From Mycobacteroides salmoniphilum (GTDB lineage Bacteria; Actinomycetota; Actinomycetes; Mycobacteriales; Mycobacteriaceae): DNA of 64,000 nucleotides. The DNA lies in NCBI RefSeq assembly GCF_004924335.1, contig NZ_CP024633.1, forward strand, positions 372,001 through 436,000, read 5' to 3'. Both the position numbers and the translations under genes were made by a program. A model generated the notes under the pieces. That model ran no database searches, was not told the DNA's origin, and worked only from the letters and a program-made list of their open reading frames with translations. Shown here one piece after another: positions 28,794 to 46,275 of the stretch; position 1 is the stretch's first letter, and every line of letters starts with the position of its first letter.

Positions 28794-30566
28794 CTACCGG
28801 GGCGCGAGCGCTCCCACCGGTCCGACGGCGACGCACAGCGACAACGACTGGGTAATCGGTTGCAGGGTAAGCGAATTCCCTGAACCTGGGAGTCTGATGA
28901 ACACTCGGTTGAGCCCGGGGCGAACCGGAACCTTGACGCTGGGCCCGTTGGTGAACGATGCCCACACCGCGCCCTCGGTGTTGGCCAGGTAGTTCAGTTC
29001 GACGATCCAGTCCGCCGGAAGCAGCGGCCCGCTCAGTGGCATGGTCTGCATGGACTGCACCAGGTACCCGCATCCTGGGACCGGCCCCTCGGTCAGGGCG
29101 CGCACCCACGTCACCTGGGCGTCCAGCAGGTGGCCGTAGCGGTCGAGCATGCGTAACTGCGTTGTGGTGGAACCGATCTCTGGCCGGGGACGGACCAGGG
29201 CGAACATATGACTTAACAGGTTCTCCGGCCGCACCACATTCTGTAGTACCAGTGGGTCGACTTCCTGATCAAGAACCGCAGGCCCGTCCGCGACCGCCGC
29301 CAACGATTGCTTCACCGTGGCGATGTACGGCGAGGCCGGGTTGTTGCGCCAGCTGCGCAGATAGTTGGCCGTCGAGACGAGGCTGCTTCCCACGAACAAT
29401 GCCAACGCGAACGCGACCACTGCGGTGCGTCGGGGTGAGCTGTCCAGGTAACCGCTGACCGGACGGTTCGGGGCGGTGAGCCCCACCGCGGCCAGTAGCG
29501 TCGCGACCACCACCAAATCCGGCAGATATCGCAAGGTCTGCGCGAGCAGCAGCGCCGTGAACGCCGATGAGCGCATGAGATAGATCGGTACCTCACTGGC
29601 GGCCAGGTACGCCAGCAGGGTCAGCCAGACGGGTGCGAGTCGCCGCTTACGAAAACACGTCAGCACGACCGTCGCGCCCAGCGCGAGCGCTCCCAACCAG
29701 ATCACCAACGACGACGGCTCGGCCCACGGTGAGCTGGGTACCCAGCGATCCCAGCGCCATGGCCCGCCCACCAACCCGGGGAGCACCCCGTGTGTGAAGG
29801 AGCGCTGGAGCAGCGACCACGTCATCGACAGGTCCGTGCTCCACCGCTTTTGATCCACCACCACCAGGTACAGGGCGATCCATGCCGCGGTGAGTGCCCC
29901 GGCCGGAATCCAGAGCATCGCGCCGCGTCGCCATGTCCGTGTCAGCGCCGACCACCCGTCGCCGCGTAGCGAGGCCAGCAGTGCCACCACGGCGAACGCC
30001 ACGAACGGAATGACCACCGACTTCTCGAAGAACAGCAGCCCGCCGAGGAAGGCGCCCATCGCCGTCGCTACGTACCTGCGGTTTCCGGTGCGATCCAGCA
30101 GCACCGCATCGGCCACGAACCAACACATTGCGGTCAGCATCGGCAGAGAATTCAGCGCGGCGGCCCACCAGGTGAAGCCGGGTATCGCCAGCGGCGTGAA
30201 CAGCGCGAACGTGAGCGGAACAAGCAGCACCGGCCGCCAACCCAGAATCACCCACAGCGCCCGCAACAGTGCCAGGGACGCCAATGCCTGCAGAATCACC
30301 AGGCTCAGCGCGGGCCAGAACCAGCTCAACGGTGCGAGCTTGGTGAGGATGCCCGCCAGTAAGAAGGCCGCGGGCATGAGGTGCCCGTCGTGGTCGTCGA
30401 ATAGATACGACGGGGAGAACAAGCCCTGTGTGCCCGCGCGACCGACCAGGATCAGGTCATCCCAATAGAAGTCGCCCCCGAACGCCAGCACGCCGCGAAC
30501 CACGAGGTGCACCACGAGGAGAGCCGCTGCGGCCACGGCAACGCGGTTGGTTCTGGCGAAAGGCAT
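28794..30566 (-). CDS. Polytopic membrane protein, GT-C-like (Rv3635-like)
   Basis: A 590-residue protein with about ten to eleven membrane helices. The first loop contains FYWDDLILVGRA, whose paired acidic residues recall the catalytic loop of GT-C glycosyltransferases. The C-terminus (about 160 residues) is extracytoplasmic and beta-rich. It matches Rv3635, adjacent to galE1 in M. tuberculosis. It probably transfers a polyprenyl-linked sugar outside the membrane, but this is inferred. ATG 30566 is preferred to a start at 30614. Confidence 0.72.
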   Translation of the reverse strand: MPFARTNRVAVAAAALLVVHLVVRGVLAFGGDFYWDDLILVGRAGTQGLFSPSYLFDDHDGHLMPAAFLLAGILTKLAPLSWFWPALSLVILQALASLALLRALWVILGWRPVLLVPLTFALFTPLAIPGFTWWAAALNSLPMLTAMCWFVADAVLLDRTGNRRYVATAMGAFLGGLLFFEKSVVIPFVAFAVVALLASLRGDGWSALTRTWRRGAMLWIPAGALTAAWIALYLVVVDQKRWSTDLSMTWSLLQRSFTHGVLPGLVGGPWRWDRWVPSSPWAEPSSLVIWLGALALGATVVLTCFRKRRLAPVWLTLLAYLAASEVPIYLMRSSAFTALLLAQTLRYLPDLVVVATLLAAVGLTAPNRPVSGYLDSSPRRTAVVAFALALFVGSSLVSTANYLRSWRNNPASPYIATVKQSLAAVADGPAVLDQEVDPLVLQNVVRPENLLSHMFALVRPRPEIGSTTTQLRMLDRYGHLLDAQVTWVRALTEGPVPGCGYLVQSMQTMPLSGPLLPADWIVELNYLANTEGAVWASFTNGPSVKVPVRPGLNRVFIRLPGSGNSLTLQPITQSLSLCVAVGPVGALAPR

Positions 30567-30583
30567 CAGGGCCCGAGAGTAGC

Positions 30584-30605
30584 GATGAACGCTTGCGTGA
30601 AGAAC
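30584..30605 (-). repeat. Inverted, diverged copy of the dispersed 22-base repeat
   Basis: On the minus strand GTTCTTCACGCAAGCGTTCA matches the core GTCTTCGCGCAAGCGCTCA seen near 48601 with about three differences. It lies just upstream of the Rv3635-like gene start. Confidence 0.5.
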
Positions 30606-30623
30606 ATCAGGCACGGTCGGTAG

Positions 30624-31924
<1,301 letters not shown>

Positions 31925-31928
<4 letters not shown>

Positions 31929-32623
31929 GGCAACCTCCGGCGGAACGCGGTGTCGAACATGATGTTGACTCCGTTGATCAGTGACTGGCCCTTGGCCATC
32001 GAGTACTCGGTGTACAGGATGTCGACGGGTTGCTCTGCTACCCGCCAATGGTTTTCGGCGATCATCGCGATGAACTCGCTGGCGTGGCCCATGCCGTTCA
32101 TCGTGATGGTGAGACCGGTGGCGACAGTGCGATTGAACACGCGCAGCCCGTTGTGGGCGTCGGTCAGGTTGAGGCGGCGGGTGCGGGGGCTCAGCAGCAC
32201 AACGGTTTTCAGGACGAAACGCTTGATCAGGGGAACATGGCTCGGCGCGGACCCCGCACCGAAACGGGTGCCGACGATGATGTCGAGCGGCTCGAGTCGC
32301 AGCCTGTCCACCATGGCCACCACATCCTTCACCTGATGCTGGCCGTCGGCGTCGAAGGTGACGAAGATCTGAGCACCGGGCTGCGCGCGGGCGTACTCGA
32401 CACCGGTTTGTATCGCTGCGCCTTGCCCCAGATTGACGGGATGCCGGACTAGATGCGCCCCGGCGCCGTGCGCCAGCGCGGCGGTGCGGTCCCTGCTGCC
32501 ATCGTCCACGCAGACGATGTTGGGGAACGTACCGAGCGCCGCGGCGATGACGTCGGCGATGACTGGCCCCTCGTTATAGGCGGGGATGACCAGCCAGACG
32601 TCGCCATTACCGGTGTTGCTCAC
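31925..32623 (-). CDS. ppgS: Polyprenyl-phosphate glycosyltransferase, GT2 (PpgS-like)
   Basis: A 232-residue GT-A enzyme of the DPM1/DPMS type: VDDGS (39-43) and the DXD-containing DADGQH (91-96). It should transfer a sugar, GalNAc in the M. tuberculosis orthologue Rv3631, from UDP to polyprenyl phosphate on the cytoplasmic face. GTG 32623 is chosen as the start in the family alignment; the frame to 32683 is longer than needed. Coupled to DUF2304. Confidence 0.85.
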
Positions 32624-32733
32624 TGGGATCAAGGTAGCACCGGCTACCCGCGAGCGGACGTCGGCTCTGCCCGGCCACGACAAGTCCTGCGATTCCGGCA
32701 GAAGGGAACGTTGGCGGCACTAATGTTTCGGCC

Positions 32734-34119
32734 ATGCAGCGGCTGTCTGGGGTAGATGCGGCGTTCTGGCACGCCGAAACGGCGGGTTGGCATATGCACA
32801 TCGGGGGACTGTCGATCTATGACCCCACCGATGCACCGGACTACAGCTTTGAGCGGGTTCGCAGCCTCATCGTGGAGAGGCTTCCGTCGATGCCGCAGCT
32901 GCGCTGGCGAGTCACCGACGTCCCACTGGGATTGGACCGGCCCTGGTTCGTCGAAGACGAGGAACTGGATCCCGACTTTCATATTCGCCGCATCGGCGTG
33001 CCCGCGCCCGGCGGCCGCAAGGAGCTGGAGGAGCTGGCGGGCCGGCTGATGTCCTACAAGCTCGACCGATCGCGCCCGTTATGGGAGCTGTGGGTCATCG
33101 AGGGTGTCGAGGGCGGACGTGTCGCCACGCTGACCAAGATGCATCACGCCATCGTCGACGGGGTTTCGGGCGCGGGCCTGGGCGAGATTCTGTTCGATAT
33201 CGCACCCGAGCCGCGGCCGGCGCCGGACGACACCGTCGGGTCGCTGGTGGGCCTCGGGTTACCCAGCCGCGAGCGCATCTTGTTGAGCGCGTTGGTCAAC
33301 CTGGGCGTCAAAACGCCCTATCGGGTCGTTCGGTTGGTGCAGCAGACGGTTCGCCAGCAGCTGGCGGTATTCGGCATGGAACGGAAATCACCCGGATACT
33401 TCGAGGCCCCGCACACCCGATTCAACGCGCCGGTGTCACCGCACCGTCGGATATCCGGCGCGCGTCTTGAACTGGCGCGGGTCAAGGCGCTCAAGGACGC
33501 GTTTGGCGTCAAGGTCAACGACGTGGTGCTGGCCATAGTGTCCGGGGCTGTCCGGGACTATCTGGCCAAGCGCGATGAGCTGCCGGAGAAACCGCTGATC
33601 GTGCAGATTCCGGTCTCGGTGCGCACCGAGGACACCGATGGTGAGGTGGGCAATCAGATCAGCTCGATGACAGTCTCGCTGGCGACGGATATCGAGGACC
33701 CGGCCGAGCGGATCAGGGCGATCTATGCGGGAACGCAGGGTGCCAAGGAAATGGCACGCGCGATGTCGGCGCATCAGATCATGGGGTTGACGGATACGAC
33801 GCCGCCGGGGCTGCTGCAGTTGGCGGCGCGCGCCTACACCGCCAGCGGGTTGTCCCGGAATCTGGCGCCGATCAACCTGGTGTTGTCCAATGTCCCGGGT
33901 CCGTCCTTCCCGCTGTACATGGCCGGTGCCCAGCTGGAATCGATGATTCCGCTGGGGCCGCCCGTCTTGGACGTGGCACTGAACATCACGTGCTTTTCCT
34001 ATATGGAGCACATGGACTTCGGTTTCGTGACGACCCCCGAGGTCGCCGCGGATATCGATGAGATGGCCGATGGTCTCGAGGCAGCGCTGGGGGAGCTGGA
34101 GCACGCGGCGGGGATCTGA
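32734..34119 (+). CDS. WS/DGAT-family O-acyltransferase
   Basis: A 461-residue wax ester synthase/diacylglycerol acyltransferase. The catalytic HHAIVDG lies at 137-143, with [10 protein letters not shown] before it and the downstream LSNVPGP and [14 protein letters not shown] motifs. It would acylate glycerides or alcohols using acyl-CoA for storage lipid or envelope wax. It is followed by the convergent flippase-like gene. Mycobacteria carry many paralogues. Confidence 0.93.
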
Positions 34120-34138: not shown

Positions 34139-35431
34139 TCAGTCGATGATGCCTTCGGTGGTCTCCGGGTCGCGCCAGAAGGCGAGTGCGGCCACATGCA
34201 CGACGATTCCGACGACGGGCCCGCCTATCAACGCGATTACCGTCCGCTCCTCCAGTCCGAGAGGCAAGAGCAGCAGCAGCGCCGAGACCACGGTAGCCCC
34301 AACCCATCCCGCCGAGTAGGCGAGGTGCCGGGCATGGGCCACGGTGGCCGCCCCGGTGAGCGTCAACAAGGCGATCATCACCGCACCGGCGGTCAACCAG
34401 CCCAGCAGTGGGCCGCCCGCCTGGTATGCCGGATCGAACACCGTCCGCAGCAACCAGGGGCCAACGGTCGTGGCGAGCGCGATGCCTACCGCTCCGACGC
34501 CGGTGATGATGGCGGCCGGGGTGATGAGCGCACTGAGGCGCCGATCCCGCTCATCGACGAAATGGGCTATCAGGTTGCCCTGCAGCGCTGTCAGCGGCAC
34601 CAGGAGCGGCGCACGGGTTAATGTGACGGCCAGGATCACCACGCCGCCGGTGGTGCCCAGATCGCCCGTCGTTGACTGCAACAGCACCGGGAACCCCATC
34701 ACCAGTACCGCGCTGGCCGCGGCCGCGGCGATCGAATGCCGGGCGCCGCGCAGGAATTCCATGGTGTCAACGAGTGCGGGTACCGTGAGCGCCTCGCGGG
34801 TAGGTTTGGAGACCACGGTGAGTAGTAACCAGGACATCGATCCGGCCACTGTTGCCCACAGATACCCGACGAGCCCGATGGTGGCCACGAAGGTGACAAC
34901 CGCCACCACCAAACGGATTCCCGCATCGGTCACCATGAGAACGCCGTACTGAGTCCATCGGCTCGACCCGGCCAGGGCGCCCAGGGTGGTCGCGTGCATA
35001 CAGAACCCGGCGAGCCCGCCGGCCAGCAATGCCACGCTGAGCCAACGAAACTCGGTGAACACATGCGATGCCCACAGCGGTGCGGTACCGACGATCCCGA
35101 CGGCAGAGGCGATGGCGAAGGCGACGGCGATCCTGATCGGCAGAGTGGTGGACAGCGGAGACCGCTCACGCTGCGCCAGCGAGAGCCGCACTTCGCGAGT
35201 GGTCTCTTGTAGTAGCCCATTGGCCGCGCCGGTCACCAAACCGAATGCGCCCCAGAAGACTCCGAACACCGAGAACAAAGCAGGACCCAGTTCGCGGGCC
35301 GCCAAGTACAGCACGGTGTAACCACAGATCGCGCTGATGGCGGTGGCAACACCGATTCGTGCGAAGCTGGAGCGGGCCGATGAGCCGCTCGGATGGAGAG
35401 GCTCAAACTCGGTGGGGCCGGCGTCGGTCAC
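34139..35431 (-). CDS. MOP/flippase-like polytopic membrane protein (Rv3630-like)
   Basis: A 430-residue protein with 12 or more hydrophobic helices, resembling Rv3630 and polysaccharide-exporter (Wzx/MATE-type) proteins. The GTG at 35431 overlaps the stop of the M1 peptidase gene as GTGA; the longer frame to 35782 overlaps that gene almost entirely out of phase and is rejected. The linkage joins it to the peptidase and synthetase genes upstream. It could flip a polyprenyl-linked sugar or export another product. Confidence 0.75.
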   Translation of the reverse strand: MTDAGPTEFEPLHPSGSSARSSFARIGVATAISAICGYTVLYLAARELGPALFSVFGVFWGAFGLVTGAANGLLQETTREVRLSLAQRERSPLSTTLPIRIAVAFAIASAVGIVGTAPLWASHVFTEFRWLSVALLAGGLAGFCMHATTLGALAGSSRWTQYGVLMVTDAGIRLVVAVVTFVATIGLVGYLWATVAGSMSWLLLTVVSKPTREALTVPALVDTMEFLRGARHSIAAAAASAVLVMGFPVLLQSTTGDLGTTGGVVILAVTLTRAPLLVPLTALQGNLIAHFVDERDRRLSALITPAAIITGVGAVGIALATTVGPWLLRTVFDPAYQAGGPLLGWLTAGAVMIALLTLTGAATVAHARHLAYSAGWVGATVVSALLLLLPLGLEERTVIALIGGPVVGIVVHVAALAFWRDPETTEGIID

Positions 35432-36780
35432 TTCCGGTCCAGGGGCGGGAGCTGTTTCTCGTATAGCCACGCGGTCCACAGCGGCCGCAGCGATTCGTCG
35501 GAGTAGCCGGCCGCCAGGCCCGTGAAGTCGTCGGTGATGACGGTGCTGTGTCGGTACCGCGTGGTCCAATCCTGCAGCAGCGCGAAGAATTTCGTGTCGC
35601 CGAGCCGTAATCGCAAGGCGTGCAATGTCAATGCTCCGCGCTTGTACACGCGATCGTCGAACATCAGTTGTGGGCCAGGGTCGGCCAGGATCAGATCTTG
35701 GGGGAGGTCTTTGAGTTTTTGATGATAGTGGCGGGAGCGGGCATCTGCCGATGGTCCACCGGACTCCTCGGACCACAGCCATTCGGCGTAACAGGCAAAC
35801 CCTTCGTGGAGCCAGATGTCGCGCCAGCGGCGCGCGGTGACGCTGTTACCGAACCACTGGTGCGCCAGCTCATGCGCCACCAGTCGCTCGGAATGCCGTT
35901 CCCCGTCGCAATGGTTCGCACCGAACACCGAAATGCCCTGTGCCTCCAGGGGAATATCGAGTTCGTCATCGGTGACCACCACGGTGTACCCGGCGGCGAA
36001 TGGGTACGGGCCGAACTGTTTGATGAACAGCTTCATCATCTGCGGCTGCCTGCCGAAGTCGTGGGTGAACCGCTCATACAGCCGCGACGGGAGCGCGGCG
36101 TTCATCGAGATCGGGTTCTTGGCGAGCTTGACGGTCTGGTAGTCCCCGATCTGCAGCGTCGCCAGATAGGGCGCCATCGGCTCGGGCTGCTCATACGTCC
36201 AGGTCGTGTGCGCGGCCCGGACCCGCCGTGATACCAACTCCCCGTTGGAGACAACGCAGTACGGGCTGTCGCTGCTGATGACAAACCGATAGCTTGCCTT
36301 GGAACTGGGGTGATCGTCGCACGGGAACCAGGACGCCGCGCCGTTCGGCTGCCCGGCCACCAGCACGCCGTTGGATAGCTCCTCGAACCCGACGTCTCCC
36401 CACATGCTGTTGATGGGGCGGGGTGATCCGCCGTATCGGATGACGATGGTCATGGCGGCTCCGGCGGGGATGCCGGTGGCCAGCTTGATGGTGATCTTTC
36501 CGCCACGATGCCCGAAATGTGTTGGACGCCTGCCATTCACGGTCACCTTCGAGACGCCGAGAGCGTCGGCGAGGTCGAGGGTGAACTCCTTGAGGGTGGC
36601 GAGGGTGACGGCGGTGATCGTTGCGGTACCGGTCAGCCGGTTGATGGCCACCTTGTATTCCAGGTCCAGCTCGTAGCGTGACACCCGATACCCGTAATTG
36701 CCGTTTTGTGGCAGATAGGGATCGATGATCGGAGGCCGTGGGGGGAGCCTTTTGGCCGCCTTTTTGCCTGGTTTGGTCAT
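35428..36780 (-). CDS. M1-family zinc metallopeptidase
   Basis: A 450-residue gluzincin with HELAHQWFGN (His303, Glu304, His307) and the third ligand Glu326 in LHEGFACYAEW. The substrate-recognition GxMEN motif of aminopeptidase N is replaced by LEAQG (278-282). No signal peptide is seen; the N-terminus is basic. The gene overlaps the peptide synthetase stop (ATGA) and its own stop overlaps the flippase start (GTGA). In epsilon-polylysine producers an M1-type peptidase degrades the polymer, so a role in processing or hydrolysing the synthetase product is suggested. Confidence 0.88.
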   Translation of the reverse strand: MTKPGKKAAKRLPPRPPIIDPYLPQNGNYGYRVSRYELDLEYKVAINRLTGTATITAVTLATLKEFTLDLADALGVSKVTVNGRRPTHFGHRGGKITIKLATGIPAGAAMTIVIRYGGSPRPINSMWGDVGFEELSNGVLVAGQPNGAASWFPCDDHPSSKASYRFVISSDSPYCVVSNGELVSRRVRAAHTTWTYEQPEPMAPYLATLQIGDYQTVKLAKNPISMNAALPSRLYERFTHDFGRQPQMMKLFIKQFGPYPFAAGYTVVVTDDELDIPLEAQGISVFGANHCDGERHSERLVAHELAHQWFGNSVTARRWRDIWLHEGFACYAEWLWSEESGGPSADARSRHYHQKLKDLPQDLILADPGPQLMFDDRVYKRGALTLHALRLRLGDTKFFALLQDWTTRYRHSTVITDDFTGLAAGYSDESLRPLWTAWLYEKQLPPLDRK

Positions 36781-39700
36781 GCGGCCTTAGGCCCCTTGCC
36801 GCCCTTGGGCTTCTTCGGTGCCATGGGATCCAGCTTGCCCCATGGAGAAATGGGGTTGCCCTGCCACCGGGTGGACGGCGGTACAACGTCACCGCGGACC
36901 ACGAGCGAGGCGGGACCGACGGTGGCGCCGGCCCCCAGTTCGGCGGCGGGCAGCGCGACGCAATGCGGTCCGAGGGTGGCACCCTCGCCCAGGACCACGG
37001 TGTCCATCCGCATGATCCGGTCGTGGAACAGATGTGTCTGCACCACGCAGCCACGGTTCACGGTTGCGCCCCTGCCCAGGGTCACCAGATCGGCCTCGGG
37101 GAGCCAGTACGTTTCGCACCACACTCCGCGGCCGATCTTTGCGCCCAGGCCACGCAGCCACCAGTTCTGCATCACCGTTCCCGACGCTGCACGCGCAAAC
37201 CACACGGCAGCAACGGTTTCCACGAAGGTGTCGGCAACCTCGTTACGCCAGACGAACGAGGACCAGAGGGGTTTCTCCACAGCTTTGGTGCGCCCGACCA
37301 CCACCCACTTGGCGACTACGCTCACCACGCCAGCCACGGCGCCGGCGATCAGCAGCACCACGCCACTGAGTGCGCCTGCGGCCCAGAAATTGAACCGGAT
37401 GGCGATGGTCTGCAAGGCCAGAAGTACCCCGACTCCGATCCCGAACGTCACGATGATCGGGATGATGCGGCACGTCTCCACGATCCCCCGCATGACCTTG
37501 AGCCGGAACGGCGGCTCGAATGTCAGCGCGGAATCTGCGCCGTCAGCCTTGCGGCGTAGTCGCTTTGGTGGGCTACCGATCCACGAAGAACCCGACTTGG
37601 CCTTGTGGGGAGTCGCAGAGAGGACGGCGACCAGCGCGTCGTTGGGTACCTTGCGGCCCGGCTGGGTAATCCCCGAGTTCCCCAGAAATGCGCGCTTGCC
37701 GATTCGGGCCTTGGCGATGTGGATCCAACCGCCGCCCAACTCATAGGACGCGACCATGGTGTCGTCGGCAAGGAACGCGCCGTCGTCGACCTCGGTGAAC
37801 TTCGGTATCAGCAGGGCTGTCGAAATCTCGGTGTCCTTGCCGATTTTCGCGCCCAGGATGCGCAGCCACCATGGGGTCAGTTGGCTGGCGTAGATGGGGA
37901 ACAAGTAGTTACGGGCTGCGTCCATCAGGCGTTCGGTGGCCCACAGTTGCCATCCCTGCCGACTGCGGACGGGGTGATAGCCCTCGTGCACGCCGATCGA
38001 CATCAGTCGCACCAGTGCAACGGTGATGGCGGCGTACACGATCACGCTGACCAGCGCCGCGCCGGGCGTCCAGATGAGCGCGGGCACCACGGCTTCACAA
38101 ATCGTCGCAGTGTTTCGGATGCCAAAGGCCACCACGCCCAGCCCGGCGGCCAGCGCGAGCAAGGGCAGTCCGCCCAGCAGGATCGATGTCACCCCGTAGA
38201 TCGGTACCCATTGCCCGGCTCGGGGCGGACGATAATCCGGCCATGGATGGCGGGCCTTGCCCGACTTCACGGCCGGTGAGCCCTTCCAGTACTGGCCGTT
38301 CTTGACTCTGCCGACGACACCGGAACCCGGTGCGACATCGGCGTTCTTGCCGATGACCGCTCCCGGTAGCAAGGTGGTGCGGGCTCCGACGGTGGCATCC
38401 TCGCCGATGACGATGGGGCCGACATGAAACTTGTCCCCGTCAACCCAATGCCCGGACAAGTCAACTTCAGGTTCGATGGAACTGCGGTTGCCAAGCTCGA
38501 GCCAACCCGTCACGGGCGGAGATGAATGCAGGTCGACACCATTACCCACACGTGCACCCAACGCCCTGGCGTAATACACCATCCACGGTGCGCCGGAAAG
38601 GTTCTCGGCGCCGCTGGCGGTGGCCAGCCGGTCGGCGATCCACACCCGCAGATGCACACTTCCGCCGCGCTCGTATATCCCGGGCTTGACCCCTGACAGC
38701 AGCAGTCGCGCCCCGACCACGGTGATACTCATGCGGCCCAGGGGGGTGATGAAGAGGACGAAGGCCGCCAGCAGCACCCACCAGTTGACCGTTACCAGCC
38801 ATGGCACATCGCTGAACATTGCGAATACGTTGTTGGCCAAAGCGAGCCAGGTCGCCCATTGCAGACCCGTGAGGGTGGTCAGCGGAAGCGTTGCTACCAC
38901 CTGCGCCAGCTCGGTCAGCCGCGGTACCGGCTTCACGATGCGGGGTTCGACCTCGACGGAAGGTGCCAGCTCATCCAGATAGGTGGCCAGCGATCCGAGC
39001 CGCGGCTGGTCGTACAGGTTCGCGACGGTCACCTGCGGGTAGCGCTGCCGCAACGCCGCGACCAGCTGCGCCGCGGAGAGCGATCCGCCACCGAGAGCGA
39101 AGAAGTCGGCCTCGGGCCCGTCGATCGTGGCCGCCAGGATGTCGCGCCACAATCCGGCGAGCCAGCCCATGGTGCCGCCCAGTTCGGCGGCGGCGTCATC
39201 GGTATCGGCTCCCGGCGGCGGCCACGGCAGCGCGTTGCGATCGACCTTTCCCGATGTGCGGGTGGGCAGTTCGTCAAGCTTCACGAGCCGCGGTACCAGT
39301 GCGGCGGGAAGCGACTCGGCCAGGCTCGCACGTGCTGCCGCGATGTCGAAGTTGGGGTCGGCGCTGGCGATGTAGCCGACCAGCAGCGGGGTGCCGCTTG
39401 CGGTCTTGCGCACCGCGGCCGCGCCGCCACTCACGCCGGGCAGGTTGACCAGCGCCGCATCCACCTCGCCGAGCTCGATACGGCGGCCACCGACCTTCAC
39501 CTGGTCATCGGCGCGACCCTGGAAGTACAACCCGTCGGCTTCCAGGCGTACCAGGTCACCACTGCGGTAGGCCCGGGACCATCCCAAAGTGTGTAACGCA
39601 GCGTACTTTTCGGCGTCCTTTTCGGGATCGAGGTACTTGGCCAGGCCGATCCCGCCGATGACCAGCTCGCCGACCTCGCCGTAGCCGACCTGGTTGCCCT

Positions 39701-40766
39701 GCGCATCCACCACTGCCAGATCCCAGCCCGGAAGCGGTAACCCGATACTGACGGGGCTGACCCCGTCGAGCTGCGCGGCGCACGCGACCACGGTCGCCTC
39801 GGTGGGGCCGTAGGTGTTCCACACCTCGCGGGCGGCACCGTCTTCACCGGTGGCCAACCGTTCAGCCAGATCCGGAGGGCAGGCCTCACCGCCGAAAATC
39901 AGCAGCCGCACCGCCTCCAGCGCTTCTGCCGGCCACAGTGCGGCAAGGGTGGGCACCGTCGACACCACGGTGACATCTCGGGACACCAGCCACGGACCCA
40001 AATCCATGCCGCTGCGCACCAGGGATCGCGGCGCGGGCACCAGGCAGGCGCCGTAGCGCCACGCGAGCCACATCTCCTCGCAGGAGGCGTCGAAGGCCAC
40101 GGAGAGTCCGGCGAGCACTCGGTCGTCGGGGCCAATCGGGTTGTCCTGTAGGAACATCTGTGCTTCGGCGTCGACAAAGGCGGCTGCGTTGCGATGTGTC
40201 ACCGCGACGCCTTTGGGGGTGCCGGTGGAACCCGAGGTGAAAATGATCCACGCGTCATCGCGCGGTGTCGGTTTGGTGGCGCGCCAGCCTCGCGACGAAC
40301 CGGGTCCACGAACGAGGCCGTCGGGGGTGATCACGGCGGCCACCTGCGCCTCACCGAACACCAGCGCCGCGCGTTCCTCGGGATCGTCGGCGTCGACGGG
40401 AACGTACGCGGCTCCCGCGGCCAGGGTCGCCAGGATCGCCACATAGAGCGAGTAACTGCCCGAGGGCATCCGGATGCCGACGCGATCACCGCGCCCGATT
40501 CCCCGAGTGCCGAGCCATTCGACACTTGCCTCGACGTCGACGAGGAGCTCGGAGTACGTGAGCTGGATGGTGCCGTCATCGATGGCGGGCGCGTCGGGGT
40601 GCTCCGCCGCGGTCGAGTAGAGGATGTCGATCAGCGTCCGGGCCGGAGGGGCTGACCTGCCGAGCAGGTACTGCGGAGGCACCGGGTGGGCCGGGGTGTC
40701 ATGGGCGACGGGCTCGGAGGCCTCTTCGTGCGCGCGGTTGGTGGGTGACTCGTCGGGGCCGGTCAC
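36777..40766 (-). CDS. Pls/PosA-type single-module peptide synthetase with membrane C-terminus
   Basis: A 1329-residue protein. Adenylation domain at about 40-520 has A3 FTSGSTGTPKG (177-187), FDAS (225-228, Asp226 for the alpha-amino group), NTYGPTE (318-324) and A10 Lys507. The carrier domain is at about 530-600 with LGGGSL (Ser562 as the pantetheine site). No condensation or thioesterase domain follows. Instead there are about six membrane helices alternating with three hexapeptide-repeat acyltransferase-like domains (near 735-835, 965-1065 and 1200-1310). This architecture and length equal epsilon-poly-L-lysine synthetase. The monomer cannot be assigned from sequence alone. Confidence 0.9.
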   Translation of the reverse strand: MTGPDESPTNRAHEEASEPVAHDTPAHPVPPQYLLGRSAPPARTLIDILYSTAAEHPDAPAIDDGTIQLTYSELLVDVEASVEWLGTRGIGRGDRVGIRMPSGSYSLYVAILATLAAGAAYVPVDADDPEERAALVFGEAQVAAVITPDGLVRGPGSSRGWRATKPTPRDDAWIIFTSGSTGTPKGVAVTHRNAAAFVDAEAQMFLQDNPIGPDDRVLAGLSVAFDASCEEMWLAWRYGACLVPAPRSLVRSGMDLGPWLVSRDVTVVSTVPTLAALWPAEALEAVRLLIFGGEACPPDLAERLATGEDGAAREVWNTYGPTEATVVACAAQLDGVSPVSIGLPLPGWDLAVVDAQGNQVGYGEVGELVIGGIGLAKYLDPEKDAEKYAALHTLGWSRAYRSGDLVRLEADGLYFQGRADDQVKVGGRRIELGEVDAALVNLPGVSGGAAAVRKTASGTPLLVGYIASADPNFDIAAARASLAESLPAALVPRLVKLDELPTRTSGKVDRNALPWPPPGADTDDAAAELGGTMGWLAGLWRDILAATIDGPEADFFALGGGSLSAAQLVAALRQRYPQVTVANLYDQPRLGSLATYLDELAPSVEVEPRIVKPVPRLTELAQVVATLPLTTLTGLQWATWLALANNVFAMFSDVPWLVTVNWWVLLAAFVLFITPLGRMSITVVGARLLLSGVKPGIYERGGSVHLRVWIADRLATASGAENLSGAPWMVYYARALGARVGNGVDLHSSPPVTGWLELGNRSSIEPEVDLSGHWVDGDKFHVGPIVIGEDATVGARTTLLPGAVIGKNADVAPGSGVVGRVKNGQYWKGSPAVKSGKARHPWPDYRPPRAGQWVPIYGVTSILLGGLPLLALAAGLGVVAFGIRNTATICEAVVPALIWTPGAALVSVIVYAAITVALVRLMSIGVHEGYHPVRSRQGWQLWATERLMDAARNYLFPIYASQLTPWWLRILGAKIGKDTEISTALLIPKFTEVDDGAFLADDTMVASYELGGGWIHIAKARIGKRAFLGNSGITQPGRKVPNDALVAVLSATPHKAKSGSSWIGSPPKRLRRKADGADSALTFEPPFRLKVMRGIVETCRIIPIIVTFGIGVGVLLALQTIAIRFNFWAAGALSGVVLLIAGAVAGVVSVVAKWVVVGRTKAVEKPLWSSFVWRNEVADTFVETVAAVWFARAASGTVMQNWWLRGLGAKIGRGVWCETYWLPEADLVTLGRGATVNRGCVVQTHLFHDRIMRMDTVVLGEGATLGPHCVALPAAELGAGATVGPASLVVRGDVVPPSTRWQGNPISPWGKLDPMAPKKPKGGKGPKAA

Positions 40767-40945: not shown

Positions 40946-41917
40946 CTAGGCCTCTTTGGCGGTGCGCCTGGTCTTGTACAGGCTGGCGACGGTGGTGATG
41001 AGCAGTGTCACGATGATCACCGCAAGGCTTGCCAACGTGGGGATCTCGGGCACATGCACCGGTTCGCCGCCGTTGAGGAAGGGCAGTTCGTTCTCGTGCA
41101 GCGCATGCAGGATCAGCTTGACGCCGATGAAGAACAGAATGAAGGCCAGCCCCTGCGACAGGTACACCAGACGCTTGAGCATGTCGCCGAGCAGGAAATA
41201 CAGCTGGCGCAGACCCATGAGGGCGAACACGTTGGCGGTGAACACCAGGTAGGGCTCTTTGGTGAGCCCGTAGATCGCGGGGATTGAGTCGAGTGCGAAG
41301 AGAAGGTCGGTGGTGCCCAGCGCGACGATCACCAGGAACATCGGCGTCATCAGTCGAGTGCCGTTTTCCCGGACCCACAGGCGCAGGCCGTCCCACGTGT
41401 CGGTGGTCCGCAGGTGCTTGCGGGCGAACTGCACCACGGCGTTGTCGGCGTCGTCGTCATGCTCGGTGTCGCGTGCCAAGTTGACGGCGGTGTACACCAG
41501 GAACGCACCGAACAGGTAGAAGATCCAGGAGAACTGGTTGATGGCCACCGCGCCGAGGGCGATGAAGATGCCGCGGAAGATCAGCGCCAGGATGATGCCG
41601 ATCAACAGCGCCTCTTGCTGATAGATCCGGGGCACCTTGAAGCTGGCCATGATGATCAAAAAGATGAACAGGTTGTCCACCGAGAGGCTGTACTCGGTGA
41701 GCCAGCCCGCGAAGAACTCCAGCCCGAACTGGCTGCCGTGGAAGAACCACACCCACAGACCGAATGCCACCGCAAGCCCGATGTAGATGCTGAGGGCGGT
41801 GGCGGTCTCGCGGACGGAGGGTTCATGGGGCCGCCTGCCGATCACCACGACGTCGACGAGCAAGATCGCGACCGTGACGGCCAGGGTGATGATCCATTCG
41901 AGCTGCGATATCTGCAT
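40946..41917 (-). CDS. TerC-family membrane metal-ion protein
   Basis: A 323-residue TerC/Alx protein with seven to eight helices and the acidic motifs typical of the family (SVDNLFIFLIIM, ALDSIPAIYG). The ATG at 41917 follows GGAGG; longer frames would run into a riboswitch. TerC proteins export manganese during secretion or excess. Control by the yybP-ykoY element directly upstream supports a Mn2+ role. Confidence 0.9.
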   Translation of the reverse strand: MQISQLEWIITLAVTVAILLVDVVVIGRRPHEPSVRETATALSIYIGLAVAFGLWVWFFHGSQFGLEFFAGWLTEYSLSVDNLFIFLIIMASFKVPRIYQQEALLIGIILALIFRGIFIALGAVAINQFSWIFYLFGAFLVYTAVNLARDTEHDDDADNAVVQFARKHLRTTDTWDGLRLWVRENGTRLMTPMFLVIVALGTTDLLFALDSIPAIYGLTKEPYLVFTANVFALMGLRQLYFLLGDMLKRLVYLSQGLAFILFFIGVKLILHALHENELPFLNGGEPVHVPEIPTLASLAVIIVTLLITTVASLYKTRRTAKEA

Positions 41918-41941
41918 GAAGTAACCTCCGGTCGCCAAAAC

Positions 41942-42044
41942 GCCGGAGGTCTCTTCCGCCGGCAGGTGACCGGCCTGCGGCACCGACCGGTCCGACAATG
42001 GCCGATGTGATGACGACACCGCAGCGAAGGAATACTCCCCTCCA
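41942..42044 (-). promoter_or_regulatory. yybP-ykoY (manganese) riboswitch upstream of terC
   Basis: Reading the minus strand, the 5' side has GGAGGGGAGTA (from 42043), a GTCGTCA element in the middle and the 3' side AGACCTCCGG (ending 41943), so that GGAGG and CCTCC close the outer helix. This is the expected layout of the Mn2+-sensing yybP-ykoY class, in the expected place before a TerC gene. No intrinsic terminator is evident; control may act on translation near the GGAGG. Confidence 0.82.
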
Positions 42045-42296: not shown

Positions 42297-42351
42297 ACCG
42301 GGCGTGGCAAGCGTGGACTCGCCGGGCGGGTCCGGTGAGATGGGATGTCAC

Positions 42352-43647
42352 ATGTCAGTGTTCACACAGTCTGGGTCCGAGCAACCGGCTGCACGTGTTG
42401 TCGGAGCCGATACCAAAGTTCCTCTGGCTCAAGGTGGCTGGATCAGATACGCCAATTTTGACTACGCTGCCAGTGCACCCGCACTCTGCGATGTCGCGGA
42501 TCGCGTCACCGAGCTGCTGCCGTACTACGCCAGTGTGCATCGTGGCGCCGGATACGCCTCACGCGTGTGCACGACCCTCTACGAGGGTGCCCGTGAGAAG
42601 GTGGGACGCTTCGTCGGTGCCGCCGCCGACCACCATGTGATCTTCACCCGCAACACCACCGACTCGCTGAATCTGCTCGCCTCGGCGGTGCCGGGTGAGG
42701 TGGTGGTTCTCGACATCGAGCACCACGCAAACCTGTTGACCTGGCAGCGATATGAGGCCCGAGTGGTCGAGCATCGAGCCACCGTCGCGGACACCGTCAC
42801 CGCGCTGGCCGACGAGCTCGCCCGGCGGCCTGCCGCACTGCTGGCCGTCACCGGCGCTTCGAATGTCACCGGCGAGGTGCTGCCGTTGGCCGAACTCGCG
42901 GCCGTCGCGCACCGGTACGGAGCGAGAATCGCCGTCGACGGGGCACAGTTGGTTCCGCACCGCCGAATCGACTTGGCGGCAACCGGAATCGACTATCTCG
43001 CGTTCTCCGGGCACAAGCTGTATGCACCGTTCGGTACCGGAGTTCTTGTGGGGCAAAGTGACTGGCTCGACGCCGCGAGGCCCTATCTTGCGGGTGGTGG
43101 GGCGGTTCGCAATGTTGGTATCGACGGGGCCGAGTGGCTCGCGGGACCCCAGCGGCATGAGGCGGGCACGCCCAATGTGGTCGGCGTTGCCGCCGTGGCG
43201 GCTGCGTGCGAGGCATTGGCCGCGCTGGGGGACATAGGCCACGTCGAGGATGTGCTCACCGCTCAACTTCGGGAAGGGCTCGCCGCGATTGAAGGTGTTG
43301 ACACCCTGAGCATTTGGAACAGTGGCCGTGACGTGCTGGGCATTGTGTCCTTCACTGTCACCGGATACACACCGTCGGTCGCTGCGGCCTATCTGTCGGC
43401 CGAACACGGAATCGGGCTGCGCGACGGCAGATTCTGCGCGCACCCGCTGCTGGCCAGGCTGGGCACCCCAGGGGGTGCGCTGCGCGCGAGTATCGGGCTG
43501 GGAACCACCGCGAGTGACATCACGCGCCTCGTCGATGCGATCGGTGAGCTCGTCCGCCACGGACCGGCGCTGACCTATACCGAGCGCGACGGGCAAGTCG
43601 GGCCGGTTGACGACAAGAGACCGCTCCCGGATTTCCTGGTGGCGTAG
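42352..43647 (+). CDS. SufS-like cysteine desulfurase / class V aminotransferase
   Basis: A 431-residue PLP enzyme. Visible residues are the ring-stacking His125 in EHHAN, Asp196 in VDGAQ, the Schiff-base Lys222 in SGHKLYAPFG and Cys362 in GRFCAHP, aligned with the catalytic Cys of SufS. It should release sulfur (or a related group) from cysteine or an analogue. It is not in a suf operon. The riboswitch upstream suggests control by S-adenosylmethionine and thus sulfur metabolism. ATG 42352 chosen. Confidence 0.85.
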   Translation: MSVFTQSGSEQPAARVVGADTKVPLAQGGWIRYANFDYAASAPALCDVADRVTELLPYYASVHRGAGYASRVCTTLYEGAREKVGRFVGAAADHHVIFTRNTTDSLNLLASAVPGEVVVLDIEHHANLLTWQRYEARVVEHRATVADTVTALADELARRPAALLAVTGASNVTGEVLPLAELAAVAHRYGARIAVDGAQLVPHRRIDLAATGIDYLAFSGHKLYAPFGTGVLVGQSDWLDAARPYLAGGGAVRNVGIDGAEWLAGPQRHEAGTPNVVGVAAVAAACEALAALGDIGHVEDVLTAQLREGLAAIEGVDTLSIWNSGRDVLGIVSFTVTGYTPSVAAAYLSAEHGIGLRDGRFCAHPLLARLGTPGGALRASIGLGTTASDITRLVDAIGELVRHGPALTYTERDGQVGPVDDKRPLPDFLVA

Positions 43648-43729
43648 ACACCGACACAGTATTCGTAACTCGTAATACGTGATACTTTCAGTTCGACACA
43701 TCACAGGGTCGGACTGACAAGGACGTCGA

Positions 43730-45319
43730 ATGACTAGTACACGTGTGCGGGGTAGTGAAGTCAACGGTGGGGAACGGGCTGTTCCCGACCATGAGGTCGT
43801 GATCATCGGAGCGGGCTTCGGCGGCATCGGCGCGGGTGTCGAGCTGACCAAAAGGGGTGTCCACGACTTCGTCATCCTGGAGAAGTGGGGTGCCGCCGGA
43901 GGCACCTGGCATGCCAACAAGTACCCAGGTGTGGCCGTGGACATCCCCACCTTTATCTACAGCTTCTCTTACGACCAGAAGACCACCTGGTCCAAGTTCT
44001 TCACGCCCGGTGACGAGCTTGAGGGGTACGCCAACGAACTCGTGGACAAGCATGAACTGCGCCGCAAGATCCGATTCAACACACGCGTGGTGCGTCAGGA
44101 ATTTGATGAGGCGCACAACATGTGGACTCTTACTCTGGACGACGACAGTGCGATCACTGCCCGGCACGTGATCGCCGCGACAGGTGGCCTCGAGCAACCC
44201 AAGCTGCCCGAGATAGAAGGTATCGACTCCTATCAGGGGGTACTGATGCACACCGCGTTGTGGGACAAGGATATTCAGCTGGCCGGAAAACGAGTGGCTG
44301 TCATCGGCACCGGCGCCACCTCGCTGCAGCTGGTTCCAGAGATTGCCCCGGAGGTCGGCCATCTCACCGTCTTTCAGCGCACCCCCATCTACGTGGGGCC
44401 CAAGCCCGATCTGAAGTACAACGCGTTCTGGCGGGCGCTGTTCGGGTTCCCCGGTGTTGCCAAGGGTATTCGGCACGCCATCAACCTCAGTACCGCATAC
44501 ATTCCGGACGCGGTCTTCAAGCTCGACTCCAAATACGTCGAATCCGCCTCGATGGCCCTGGCGAACCGGATGCGCGGCTGGATGCGTACGCAGGTCGACG
44601 ACCCGGTTACCCGAGAGAAGCTGCTGCCGTACTACGGGTTTGGCTGTAAGCGTCCCTCGTTCTCCAATACCTACCTCAAGACGTTCAACCGCCCCAACGT
44701 CGCCTTGGTGACCGAACCCATTCAACGAATCACCGAGAAGGGCCTGCTGACCGCGGATGGGGTCGAGCACGAAGTGGATGTGTTGATCTGCGCCACCGGG
44801 TTCGCGATCTGGGATCACATGCCGGCCTTCCCGACCGCCGGTCGGCGCGGCAAGGATCTGAAGCAGTTCTTCCAGGAGAACCGTTATCAGGCATACCAGG
44901 GTGTTTCGGTCCCGGATTACCCCAACTTCTTCCTTGTCCTCGGACCCTACGGATACGTCTTCGGGCCCTATCACATGCTGATCGAGTCGACCACCGCGCA
45001 CGCGGCCCGGGTGATTGCGGAGACGAAGAAGCGTGGTGCTACCACCGCCGAGGTCAAGCAGGATGTGCACCAGGCCTACTTCGACAAGATGCACGCGCGC
45101 AATGAGAATCACCTGTGGCTCTCGCCGGCATGCTCGACGGCCAATACGTACTACATCGACAACCATGGTGATTCCCCCTTCCGCCCAGGCGGTTTCGGTG
45201 AAATGTACTTTCACAACAAGTACTTCCGGCTGGACAACTATCGGTACGGCACCGAGACGGTGGCGCCGGTAGTGGAGGCGGCGTCGAGGCGCAAGCGCAA
45301 CAAGGAGGTTGTGGGATGA
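43730..45319 (+). CDS. FAD-dependent Baeyer-Villiger-type monooxygenase
   Basis: A 529-residue class B flavin monooxygenase with two Rossmann motifs, GAGFGG (27-32) and VIGTGATS, and a BVMO-like fingerprint YQGVLMHTALWDKD. It would insert oxygen beside a ketone or oxidise a heteroatom using NADPH. It starts at ATG 43730 and overlaps the SDR gene as ATGA, so the pair probably acts in one pathway, for example alcohol to ketone to ester. Substrate unknown. Confidence 0.9.
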   Translation: MTSTRVRGSEVNGGERAVPDHEVVIIGAGFGGIGAGVELTKRGVHDFVILEKWGAAGGTWHANKYPGVAVDIPTFIYSFSYDQKTTWSKFFTPGDELEGYANELVDKHELRRKIRFNTRVVRQEFDEAHNMWTLTLDDDSAITARHVIAATGGLEQPKLPEIEGIDSYQGVLMHTALWDKDIQLAGKRVAVIGTGATSLQLVPEIAPEVGHLTVFQRTPIYVGPKPDLKYNAFWRALFGFPGVAKGIRHAINLSTAYIPDAVFKLDSKYVESASMALANRMRGWMRTQVDDPVTREKLLPYYGFGCKRPSFSNTYLKTFNRPNVALVTEPIQRITEKGLLTADGVEHEVDVLICATGFAIWDHMPAFPTAGRRGKDLKQFFQENRYQAYQGVSVPDYPNFFLVLGPYGYVFGPYHMLIESTTAHAARVIAETKKRGATTAEVKQDVHQAYFDKMHARNENHLWLSPACSTANTYYIDNHGDSPFRPGGFGEMYFHNKYFRLDNYRYGTETVAPVVEAASRRKRNKEVVG

Positions 45320-46275
45320 GACTGTTGCCGGGGCGCAAACCAGAACTTGTCGTCGTAACCGGAGCAGGGAGCGGCATCGGGCGAGCCATCGCTATCCAAT
45401 TCGCACGGGGCGGTGCGGAGGTGGTGGCCTCCGATGTGGATCTGACGACCGCCCAGGAAACGGCGGCGATCATCCACCGGAAGGGGCATCGGGCGGTGGC
45501 TTTTCAGCTCGATGTCACCGATCCGGCGGCCTGGGAGCGGTTCGCTGATCAGGTGCGGGCCGAATACGGTGTCCCCGATGTGCTGGTGAACAACGCGGGC
45601 ATCATGGTCGGCGGGCGCTTCTTCGATCTTGAGCAGGAGCACTGGGAAAAGCAGTTCCGGGTCAACGTATTCGGTGTCGCCTATGGCGGACGGGTCTTTG
45701 GCAAGCAGATGGCCGAACGTGGCCGCGGCGGTCAGATCGTCAATATCGCCTCGGCGGGGGCCATCACCCCGACGCCGATCTTCCCCGCCTATTCGGCCTC
45801 CAAGGCGGCGGTGAAGATGCTGAGCGAGTGTATGCGGATGGAGTTGGGTCCCAAGGGAATTGGCGTATCCGCGGTGTGTCCTGGCTTCATCAACACCAAC
45901 ATCGGGGTAAACGCCACCGTCGCCGGTCTGGACCTTCGCGATGATGTGCGTGAGCGTGCGAACAGCGCCATGAGGGCGTTCCAGTCCTCTGCCCCGATGC
46001 GGGTGCTGGACCAGCTGATCGGTCCCCCGCAGGTTGCGCGTGCCACGGTCCGCGCTGCCCGCTACAACTTTGCGGTGGCTCCGGTGCGTCCCGAGGCGTG
46101 GCTGGGCTACTTCTTGAGCAGGCTCCTGCCCGGTCTCAATCGACATTTCATGTATCCGATCCCGTACTGGCTCGGATTGGATATCGACACGCTCATGCCC
46201 AAGGTGCAACGTGTCATCGACAACCTGACCGAACGCAGCCCGTCGGCGCCGCTCACCGAGCAGCCGGCGGTGTGA
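45316..46275 (+). CDS. Short-chain dehydrogenase/reductase
   Basis: A 319-residue classical SDR with NAD(P) motif TGAGSGIG (16-23), NNAG, catalytic Ser in IASAG and YSASK. Its ATG overlaps the monooxygenase stop, so it is co-translated with it. A C-terminal extension (about 40 residues after the core) resembles the mycobacterial SDRs that accompany BVMO and hydrolase genes. Probably oxidises an alcohol to feed the monooxygenase. Confidence 0.9.
   Translation: MRLLPGRKPELVVVTGAGSGIGRAIAIQFARGGAEVVASDVDLTTAQETAAIIHRKGHRAVAFQLDVTDPAAWERFADQVRAEYGVPDVLVNNAGIMVGGRFFDLEQEHWEKQFRVNVFGVAYGGRVFGKQMAERGRGGQIVNIASAGAITPTPIFPAYSASKAAVKMLSECMRMELGPKGIGVSAVCPGFINTNIGVNATVAGLDLRDDVRERANSAMRAFQSSAPMRVLDQLIGPPQVARATVRAARYNFAVAPVRPEAWLGYFLSRLLPGLNRHFMYPIPYWLGLDIDTLMPKVQRVIDNLTERSPSAPLTEQPAV

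What the first reader, a model, noticed from the sequence alone, without database searches (positions are those of the whole stretch)
34139..40766. Pls/PosA-like peptide synthetase, M1 peptidase and flippase-like gene form one overlapping operon
The synthetase has the A-PCP-membrane-hexapeptide architecture and length of epsilon-polylysine synthetase. Its stop overlaps an M1 zinc peptidase, the class known to degrade epsilon-polylysine in producers, whose stop overlaps a flippase-like exporter gene. This suggests a mycobacterial system that makes, trims and moves a cationic isopeptide or an aminoacylated envelope component.
Basis: inference. Interest (0 to 1): 0.78.

Follow-up and report, generated by a model that had tools for sequence, protein, structure and literature searches.

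The report
Mycobacterial polylysine operon with envelope flippase
Many mycobacteria carry a gene pair like the one that makes and breaks down the antimicrobial polymer epsilon-polylysine, joined in one operon to a membrane flippase that seems to belong to the machinery decorating the cell wall with an amino sugar, which suggests that the cell makes a positively charged polymer and adjusts its wall together.

Summary
The synthetase is a Pls/PosA-family enzyme (TIGR02353, 736 bits), and its pocket code DAESIGTVVK equals that of the solved epsilon-polylysine synthase A domain, so lysine is the likely substrate. A pls-peptidase operon is known from Streptomyces and Corynebacterium (PMC8117764): the first two genes are a new member of a known kind. 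The third gene is the new part, and probably not a polymer exporter. By gene order it is the Rv3630-type protein of the PpgS locus (galactosamine decoration of arabinogalactan). It occurs in 134 of 138 genomes of the genus, with or without pls, and is the natural candidate for the lipid-sugar flippase called 'as yet unidentified' in PMC9671496. It directly follows pls-M1 in 74 of 98 pls genomes; in seven more, pls lies at the far end of the same locus. Boldest reading, unproven: a polycation maker fused to an Arn-like cationic wall shield.

The parts
36777..40766 (-). pls: A domain, carrier domain (Ser562) and Pls/PosA terminal domain, 1329 aa
   Evidence: TIGR02353 736.4 bits, cut-off 423.1; A domain to 7wew 646.5 bits; code DAESIGTVVK
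35428..36780 (-). M1 zinc peptidase, 450 aa, PldII-like by its place; ATGA overlap with pls
   Evidence: PF01433 and PF17900; HEXXH-X18-E; overlap conserved in 73 of 73 loci
34139..35431 (-). MOP-fold flippase-like protein, 430 aa, Rv3630-type by gene order; GTGA overlap with M1
32734..34119 (+). WS/DGAT acyltransferase lying between flippase and ppgS; not part of the operon
   Evidence: PF03007, TIGR02946; in this place (identity 50% or more) in 4 of 131 loci
31925..32683 (-). ppgS, polyprenyl-phospho-N-acetylgalactosaminyl synthase (the true start is probably further in than the listed ORF start)
   Evidence: NF058614 422.3 bits, cut-off 370
31560..31928 (-). Rv3632-like small membrane protein by its place; its GTG start overlaps the ppgS stop
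   Evidence: ORF and starts; match in 97 of 131 loci
30672..31616 (+). galE1: 314-aa epimerase, Rv3634c-type (UDP-Gal/GalNAc 4-epimerase) by length and place
   Evidence: PF01370; Rv3634c activity from PMC5389812 passages
28794..30614 (-). GT-C-fold membrane glycosyltransferase with a C-terminal carbohydrate-binding-like domain; acceptor unknown
40946..42019 (-). terC/alx membrane protein upstream of pls; flank marker of the pls-M1 cassette
   Evidence: PF03741, TIGR03718; within 1.5 kb of pls in 58 of 73 joined loci

Best explanation
The locus is a two-gene epsilon-polylysine-type unit (pls plus a PldII-like M1 peptidase) coupled by overlapping genes to a MOP flippase of a polyprenyl-phosphate-sugar pathway. 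Pls loads lysine on its carrier domain and polymerises it in its own membrane domain. The M1 enzyme trims or degrades polymer or oligomers. The third protein turns a polyprenyl-phosphate-linked sugar (in genomes with PpgS most likely polyprenyl-P-GalNAc, made from UDP-GalNAc supplied by GalE1) to the outer face, for transfer to the wall polysaccharide. Shown here: anatomy, overlaps, conservation, lysine code, zinc ligands, folds, and the standing of the flippase gene with ppgS in and outside the genus. Inferred: the product, both substrates, and the reason for the coupling, most likely joint expression of a polycation and of a positively charged wall decoration.
For: TIGR02353 well over its cut-off; code equal to 7wew; M1 present in 31 of 31 pls genomes and 0 of 6 pls-free genomes of the genus, and adjacent in 8 of 8 pls genomes outside it; 4-base overlaps in 73 of 73 and 70 of 73 loci; MOP fold; flippase directly before ppgS in 91 of 101 genus genomes that have both; relatives of the flippase next to PpgS (G052, G050) or one gene from it (G060, G047) in the four outside genomes with the best PpgS scores; pls-M1 in this locus in two arrangements, 74 plus 7 of 98; the pathway lacks a known flippase (PMC9671496 passages).
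Against: 32 of the 74 joined genomes lack PpgS, so there the flippase must serve another lipid-sugar or another substrate. MATE chains score slightly above WzxE, so the fold does not exclude an exporter. Galactosamine is tied to slow growers by the title of Draper 1997 (seen only in reference lists), whereas this clade grows fast (recalled). Conserved order may be plain descent: adjacency changes only 3 times on the tree, and the pairwise test has no power. 16 of 98 pls genomes have the pair away from the locus or on another contig, and one has no flippase match.
Confidence: 0.52

Rival explanations
1. One reading: the MOP protein exports the cationic isopeptide or its fragments, so that the three genes make, trim and move one polymer.
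For: Overlap with M1 in 70 of 73 loci; best fold matches are MATE exporters; the flippase is kept in 32 genomes with pls beside it but no PpgS; Rv3630 is called a putative drug efflux protein (PMC8562490 passages).
Against: Present in 134 of 138 genomes, 36 of the 40 scored without pls among them (one of the 40, G150, has a cut pls at a contig end); ancient company of PpgS; pls-M1 pairs outside the genus and in the 15 slow-grower-type genomes lack it beside them; Pls is described as excreting its product itself (PMC8117764).
Confidence: 0.2
2. No functional link: pls-M1 landed once between terC and the flippase gene and has stayed there by descent; the overlaps are the usual compactness of actinobacterial genomes.
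For: Adjacency needs only 3 changes on the tree; terC and flippase stand side by side without pls in 13 genomes; pls is away from the locus in a large clade and the flippase copes.
Against: The 4-base overlap is kept across proteins only about 60-66% identical; in a clade of seven, pls-M1 sits at the other end of the same locus, behind the GT-C gene.
Confidence: 0.3
3. Pls does not release a free polymer but puts lysine or short lysine chains on an envelope glycan or lipid presented by the flippase.
For: Coupling to a lipid-sugar pathway and a GT-C gene.
Against: The terminal domain is the standard TIGR02353 type over its full length (2-695 of 695), as in polymer makers; no dedicated acceptor or ligase gene was seen in the genes examined.
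Confidence: 0.07

Closest known systems
pls-pldII operon of epsilon-poly-L-lysine (Streptomyces albulus, Corynebacterium variabile; PMC8117764)
   Same: Pls architecture, lysine pocket code, peptidase gene directly behind pls in one operon
   Different: A third overlapping gene, a MOP flippase of the PpgS locus; no product shown in mycobacteria. That PldII is an M1 enzyme is recalled; the passages read say only 'peptidase'
PosA delta-poly-L-ornithine synthetase (Acinetobacter baumannii; PMC10522769)
   Same: Same synthetase family
   Different: PosA code has Met at the second place and no co-transcribed neighbours; here Ala, with an operon
Arabinogalactan galactosamine pathway: Rv3634c, PpgS, Rv3632, unknown flippase, Rv3779 (PMC9671496)
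   Same: GalE1, ppgS and the Rv3632-like gene stand behind the flippase gene
   Different: Joined to pls-M1; 32 of 74 joined genomes lack ppgS, and 31 of these have another epimerase gene in its place
ArnC-ArnEF-ArnT aminoarabinose pathway of Gram-negative bacteria (recalled)
   Different: MOP flippase instead of ArnEF, another acceptor, and coupling to a polycation synthetase

Membership tests
Epsilon-polylysine synthetase (Pls) | A domain, carrier domain and Pls/PosA terminal domain in one chain | tested here: met
   PF00501, PF00550, TIGR02353 over cut-off
Epsilon-polylysine synthetase (Pls) | Lysine pocket code as in a characterised Pls | tested here: met
   DAESIGTVVK in 90 fully covered rows of 92, two partial rows agree; same residues in the 7wew row; code numbering recalled, placed by motif
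Epsilon-polylysine synthetase (Pls) | Six membrane stretches around three tandem domains | tested here: inconclusive
   Full-length TIGR02353 match, but a crude hydropathy scan gives five stretches
Epsilon-polylysine synthetase (Pls) | Makes epsilon-poly-L-lysine | not testable with these tools
   Needs expression and mass spectrometry
PosA ornithine polymer synthetase | Met at the second code place | tested here: not met
   Ala in the window and in the covered rows; rule from PMC10522769 passages
M1 zinc peptidase | HEXXH-X18-E zinc site | tested here: met
   HELAH at 303 and Glu326; PF01433 over cut-off
M1 zinc peptidase | GXMEN substrate motif of classical M1 aminopeptidases (motif recalled) | tested here: not met
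   No GXMEN in the protein; EAQG stands upstream of HELAH
PldII (epsilon-polylysine-degrading enzyme) | Gene directly behind pls | tested here: met
   31 of 31 genus genomes with pls have M1; adjacent in 8 of 8 outside genomes; overlap in 73 of 73 loci
PldII (epsilon-polylysine-degrading enzyme) | Degrades epsilon-polylysine | not testable with these tools
   Enzyme assay needed; PldII sequence not in hand for comparison
MOP-superfamily transporter | MOP fold | tested here: met
Flippase of the PpgS pathway | Stands with ppgS in and outside the genus | tested here: met
   91 of 101 directly before ppgS; next to or one gene from PpgS in the four outside genomes examined
Flippase of the PpgS pathway | Flips polyprenyl-phosphate-GalNAc | not testable with these tools
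   Deletion and lipid analysis needed
PpgS | NF058614 over its cut-off | tested here: met
   422.3 bits against 370

The most novel reading that the evidence does not exclude
Mycobacteria carry a polycation maker fused to an Arn-like shield: one coupled operon makes and trims epsilon-polylysine and also supplies the flippase that lets the cell add positively charged amino sugar to its arabinogalactan, so that producer immunity (charge repulsion at the wall) is switched on together with the polymer. The same gene family is the missing polyprenyl-phosphate-sugar flippase of arabinogalactan decoration.
Probability: 0.27. Interest if true: 0.78.

Novelty: new variant of a known kind. Interest (0 to 1): 0.56.

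Why it matters
If right, two open points become directly testable: whether mycobacteria make a cationic isopeptide at all (pls is in 98 of the 138 genus genomes searched), and which protein flips the lipid-linked amino sugar that decorates arabinogalactan, called unidentified in PMC9671496. The coupling itself would be a new way to tie a polycation to producer immunity.

Tried and rejected
Polymer-exporter reading of the third gene: kept as a rival but lowered, because the gene is nearly universal in the genus (134 of 138) and stands with PpgS elsewhere.

Fisher test of ppgS absence against adjacency to pls (32 of 74 versus 1 of 60; p 2.6e-9): not used as proof, because the genomes are related. 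On the flippase tree the independent-pairs test had 7 pairs on starred branches, nearly all without a difference in adjacency, hence no power. The tree is a 'quick' one with 34 of 128 inner branches under 80 support. For the tree G008 and G150 were labelled adjacent, because contig ends cut M1 or pls there; in the counts they are not.

Rows left out: only the best match per genome was used (two further flippase matches of G088 and a second pls of G030 dropped); the flippase loci of G110, G136 and G142 (fragments) were not fetched, so 131 of 134 were; the first neighbour table had lost M1 to antisense ORFs and was replaced.

Profile searches of the flippase and GT-C alignments in the PDB by sequence gave nothing useful. 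Ornithine, Dab or Dap as substrate: disfavoured by the code (PMC10522769). A replacement polyprenyl-P-sugar synthase in PpgS-lacking genomes was not searched for. Whether the GT-C protein is the galactosaminyl transferase was not settled: the literature gives that step to Rv3779, which was not compared. PpgS-like genes of outside genomes below 105 bits were not examined for a neighbouring flippase.

Literature: no paper on a mycobacterial pls operon was seen in the listings. This is weak: CC-licensed PMC text only; one search counted 29 papers with both 'NAPAA' and 'Mycobacterium', 20 listed and none of these opened; one search was swamped (38,598 papers). Of the 15 papers that name Rv3630 two were read in passages.

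Full report
What is there. The window lies in a 4.78 Mb, one-contig genome. By the third gene, its nearest named relatives in the genome collection are Mycobacterium sp. D16R12 (97% identity) and, further off, Mycobacteroides franklinii and M. chelonae (88 and 92%), so it belongs to the Mycobacteroides group (inference). On the minus strand pls (36777-40766), an M1 peptidase gene (35428-36780) and a membrane-protein gene (34139-35431) follow one another with 4-base overlaps, ATGA and GTGA. The third ORF is drawn too long in the mechanical list (to 35782); the GTG at 35431 gives a 430-aa protein and the same joint as in relatives.

Not chance. In 138 genomes of the genus, drawn evenly by the tool from a larger group, pls is found in 98, the third gene in 134 and PpgS (E up to 1e-50) in 103. 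In 74 of the 98 pls genomes the third gene follows on the same strand at the distance of one M1 gene (1361-1478 bases between the matches); 16 have it elsewhere on the contig, 7 on another contig, and one has no match. In the 73 of these 74 loci that I fetched, a start codon giving a 4-base overlap is present at the pls/M1 joint in 73 and at the M1/third-gene joint in 70. M1 goes with pls: a match in 31 of 31 pls genomes and 0 of 6 pls-free genomes of the genus (E up to 1e-20), and next to pls in 8 of 8 pls genomes outside the genus. Two second copies of pls show no M1 beside them, in G040 and G030.

The synthetase. It has an A domain, a carrier domain and the full TIGR02353 terminal domain; a crude hydropathy scan finds five hydrophobic stretches there rather than the six described for Pls. 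The A domain matches the solved epsilon-poly-L-lysine synthase 7wew with 646.5 bits. The ten-residue pocket code, placed by motif with recalled numbering, is D A E S I G T V V K in 90 fully covered rows of an alignment of 92; two rows cut by contig ends agree where present, and some genomes are in twice. The 7wew row shows the same residues. PMC10522769 (passages) gives alanine at the second place for lysine, methionine for ornithine (PosA) and phenylalanine for Dap/Dab. Lysine is therefore the best guess. PMC8117764 (parts 1 and 2 of 4 read; [quoted passage not shown] variabile Pls makes epsilon-polylysine when expressed in S. coelicolor, although C. variabile itself gave none in culture and neither did C. 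glutamicum carrying the gene. That PldII belongs to M1 is recalled. The first two genes are thus a new member of a known kind.

The peptidase. It has the zinc site HEXXH-X18-E but not the GXMEN motif of classical M1 aminopeptidases (motif recalled; EAQG is in its neighbourhood). Its best match among solved structures is a two-domain zinc metalloprotease, 6a8z (E 1e-40).

The link between the two systems. The pls-M1 pair behaves as a cassette. terC and the flippase gene stand side by side (39-339 bases apart) in 13 genomes without pls between them, and a terC match lies within 1.5 kb of pls in 58 of 73 joined loci. In a clade of 7 genomes (supported at 100) pls-M1 is not beside the flippase but behind the GT-C gene of the same locus, in 7 of 7, about 50 to 2100 bases downstream. 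So 81 of 98 pls genomes have pls at this locus in one of two arrangements. In 32 of the 74 joined genomes PpgS is missing; 31 of these have another epimerase gene (galE2) in line behind the flippase gene. The flippase is kept there. Of the 134 genomes with the flippase only G096 has neither PpgS nor pls. These counts are not independent: on the flippase tree adjacency needs 3 changes and ppgS absence 10, and the pairwise test has no power.

How it most likely works. Pls loads lysine and makes the polymer in its membrane domain (family knowledge); the M1 enzyme trims or destroys polymer (by analogy with PldII); the flippase presents a polyprenyl-linked sugar outside, in genomes with PpgS most likely polyprenyl-P-GalNAc, and the wall gains amino groups, which carry positive charge (PMC7502851 passages). 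Gram-negative bacteria add aminoarabinose by ArnC, ArnEF and ArnT and so withstand cationic peptides (recalled). A polycation maker has the same need, which would explain the coupling. This last step is inference; I put it at 0.27.

Against it. PpgS is absent in 32 joined genomes; galactosamine is tied to slow growers by the title of Draper 1997 (seen only in reference lists), while the window's clade grows fast (recalled), although PMC9671496 cites small amounts in C. glutamicum; no product is known in mycobacteria; the fold cannot exclude an exporter. Order kept by plain descent is the strongest rival for the coupling (0.3).

Verdict. A new variant of a known kind.

Noticed in passing
window 32734-34119: A WS/DGAT gene on the plus strand splits flippase and ppgS only in the window genome and G074, G112 and G116 (4 of 131 loci).
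   Followed up: partly
window 40946-42019: terC runs in the direction of pls in the same four genomes, but divergently in the other loci where it was matched near pls.
   Followed up: no
L061, L064, L053, L062 and 27 other PpgS-lacking loci: A GalE-type epimerase gene (galE2) stands in line behind the flippase gene where ppgS is missing; ppgS absence changes at least 10 times on the flippase tree, as if two middle cassettes were exchanged.
   Followed up: partly
L274 (G030, second contig): A second pls copy without an M1 match beside it.
   Followed up: no
L267 (G069): The pls match is short (345 bits; alignment ends at residue 989), perhaps a broken gene.
   Followed up: no
window 42304-46275: Upstream in a row: a SufS-like class V aminotransferase, a flavin monooxygenase-like protein and a short-chain dehydrogenase.
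   Followed up: no
control genome Corynebacterium glutamicum: It passes the cut-offs of both TIGR02353 and NF058614 in the tool's control runs, so a laboratory species may hold both systems.
   Followed up: no
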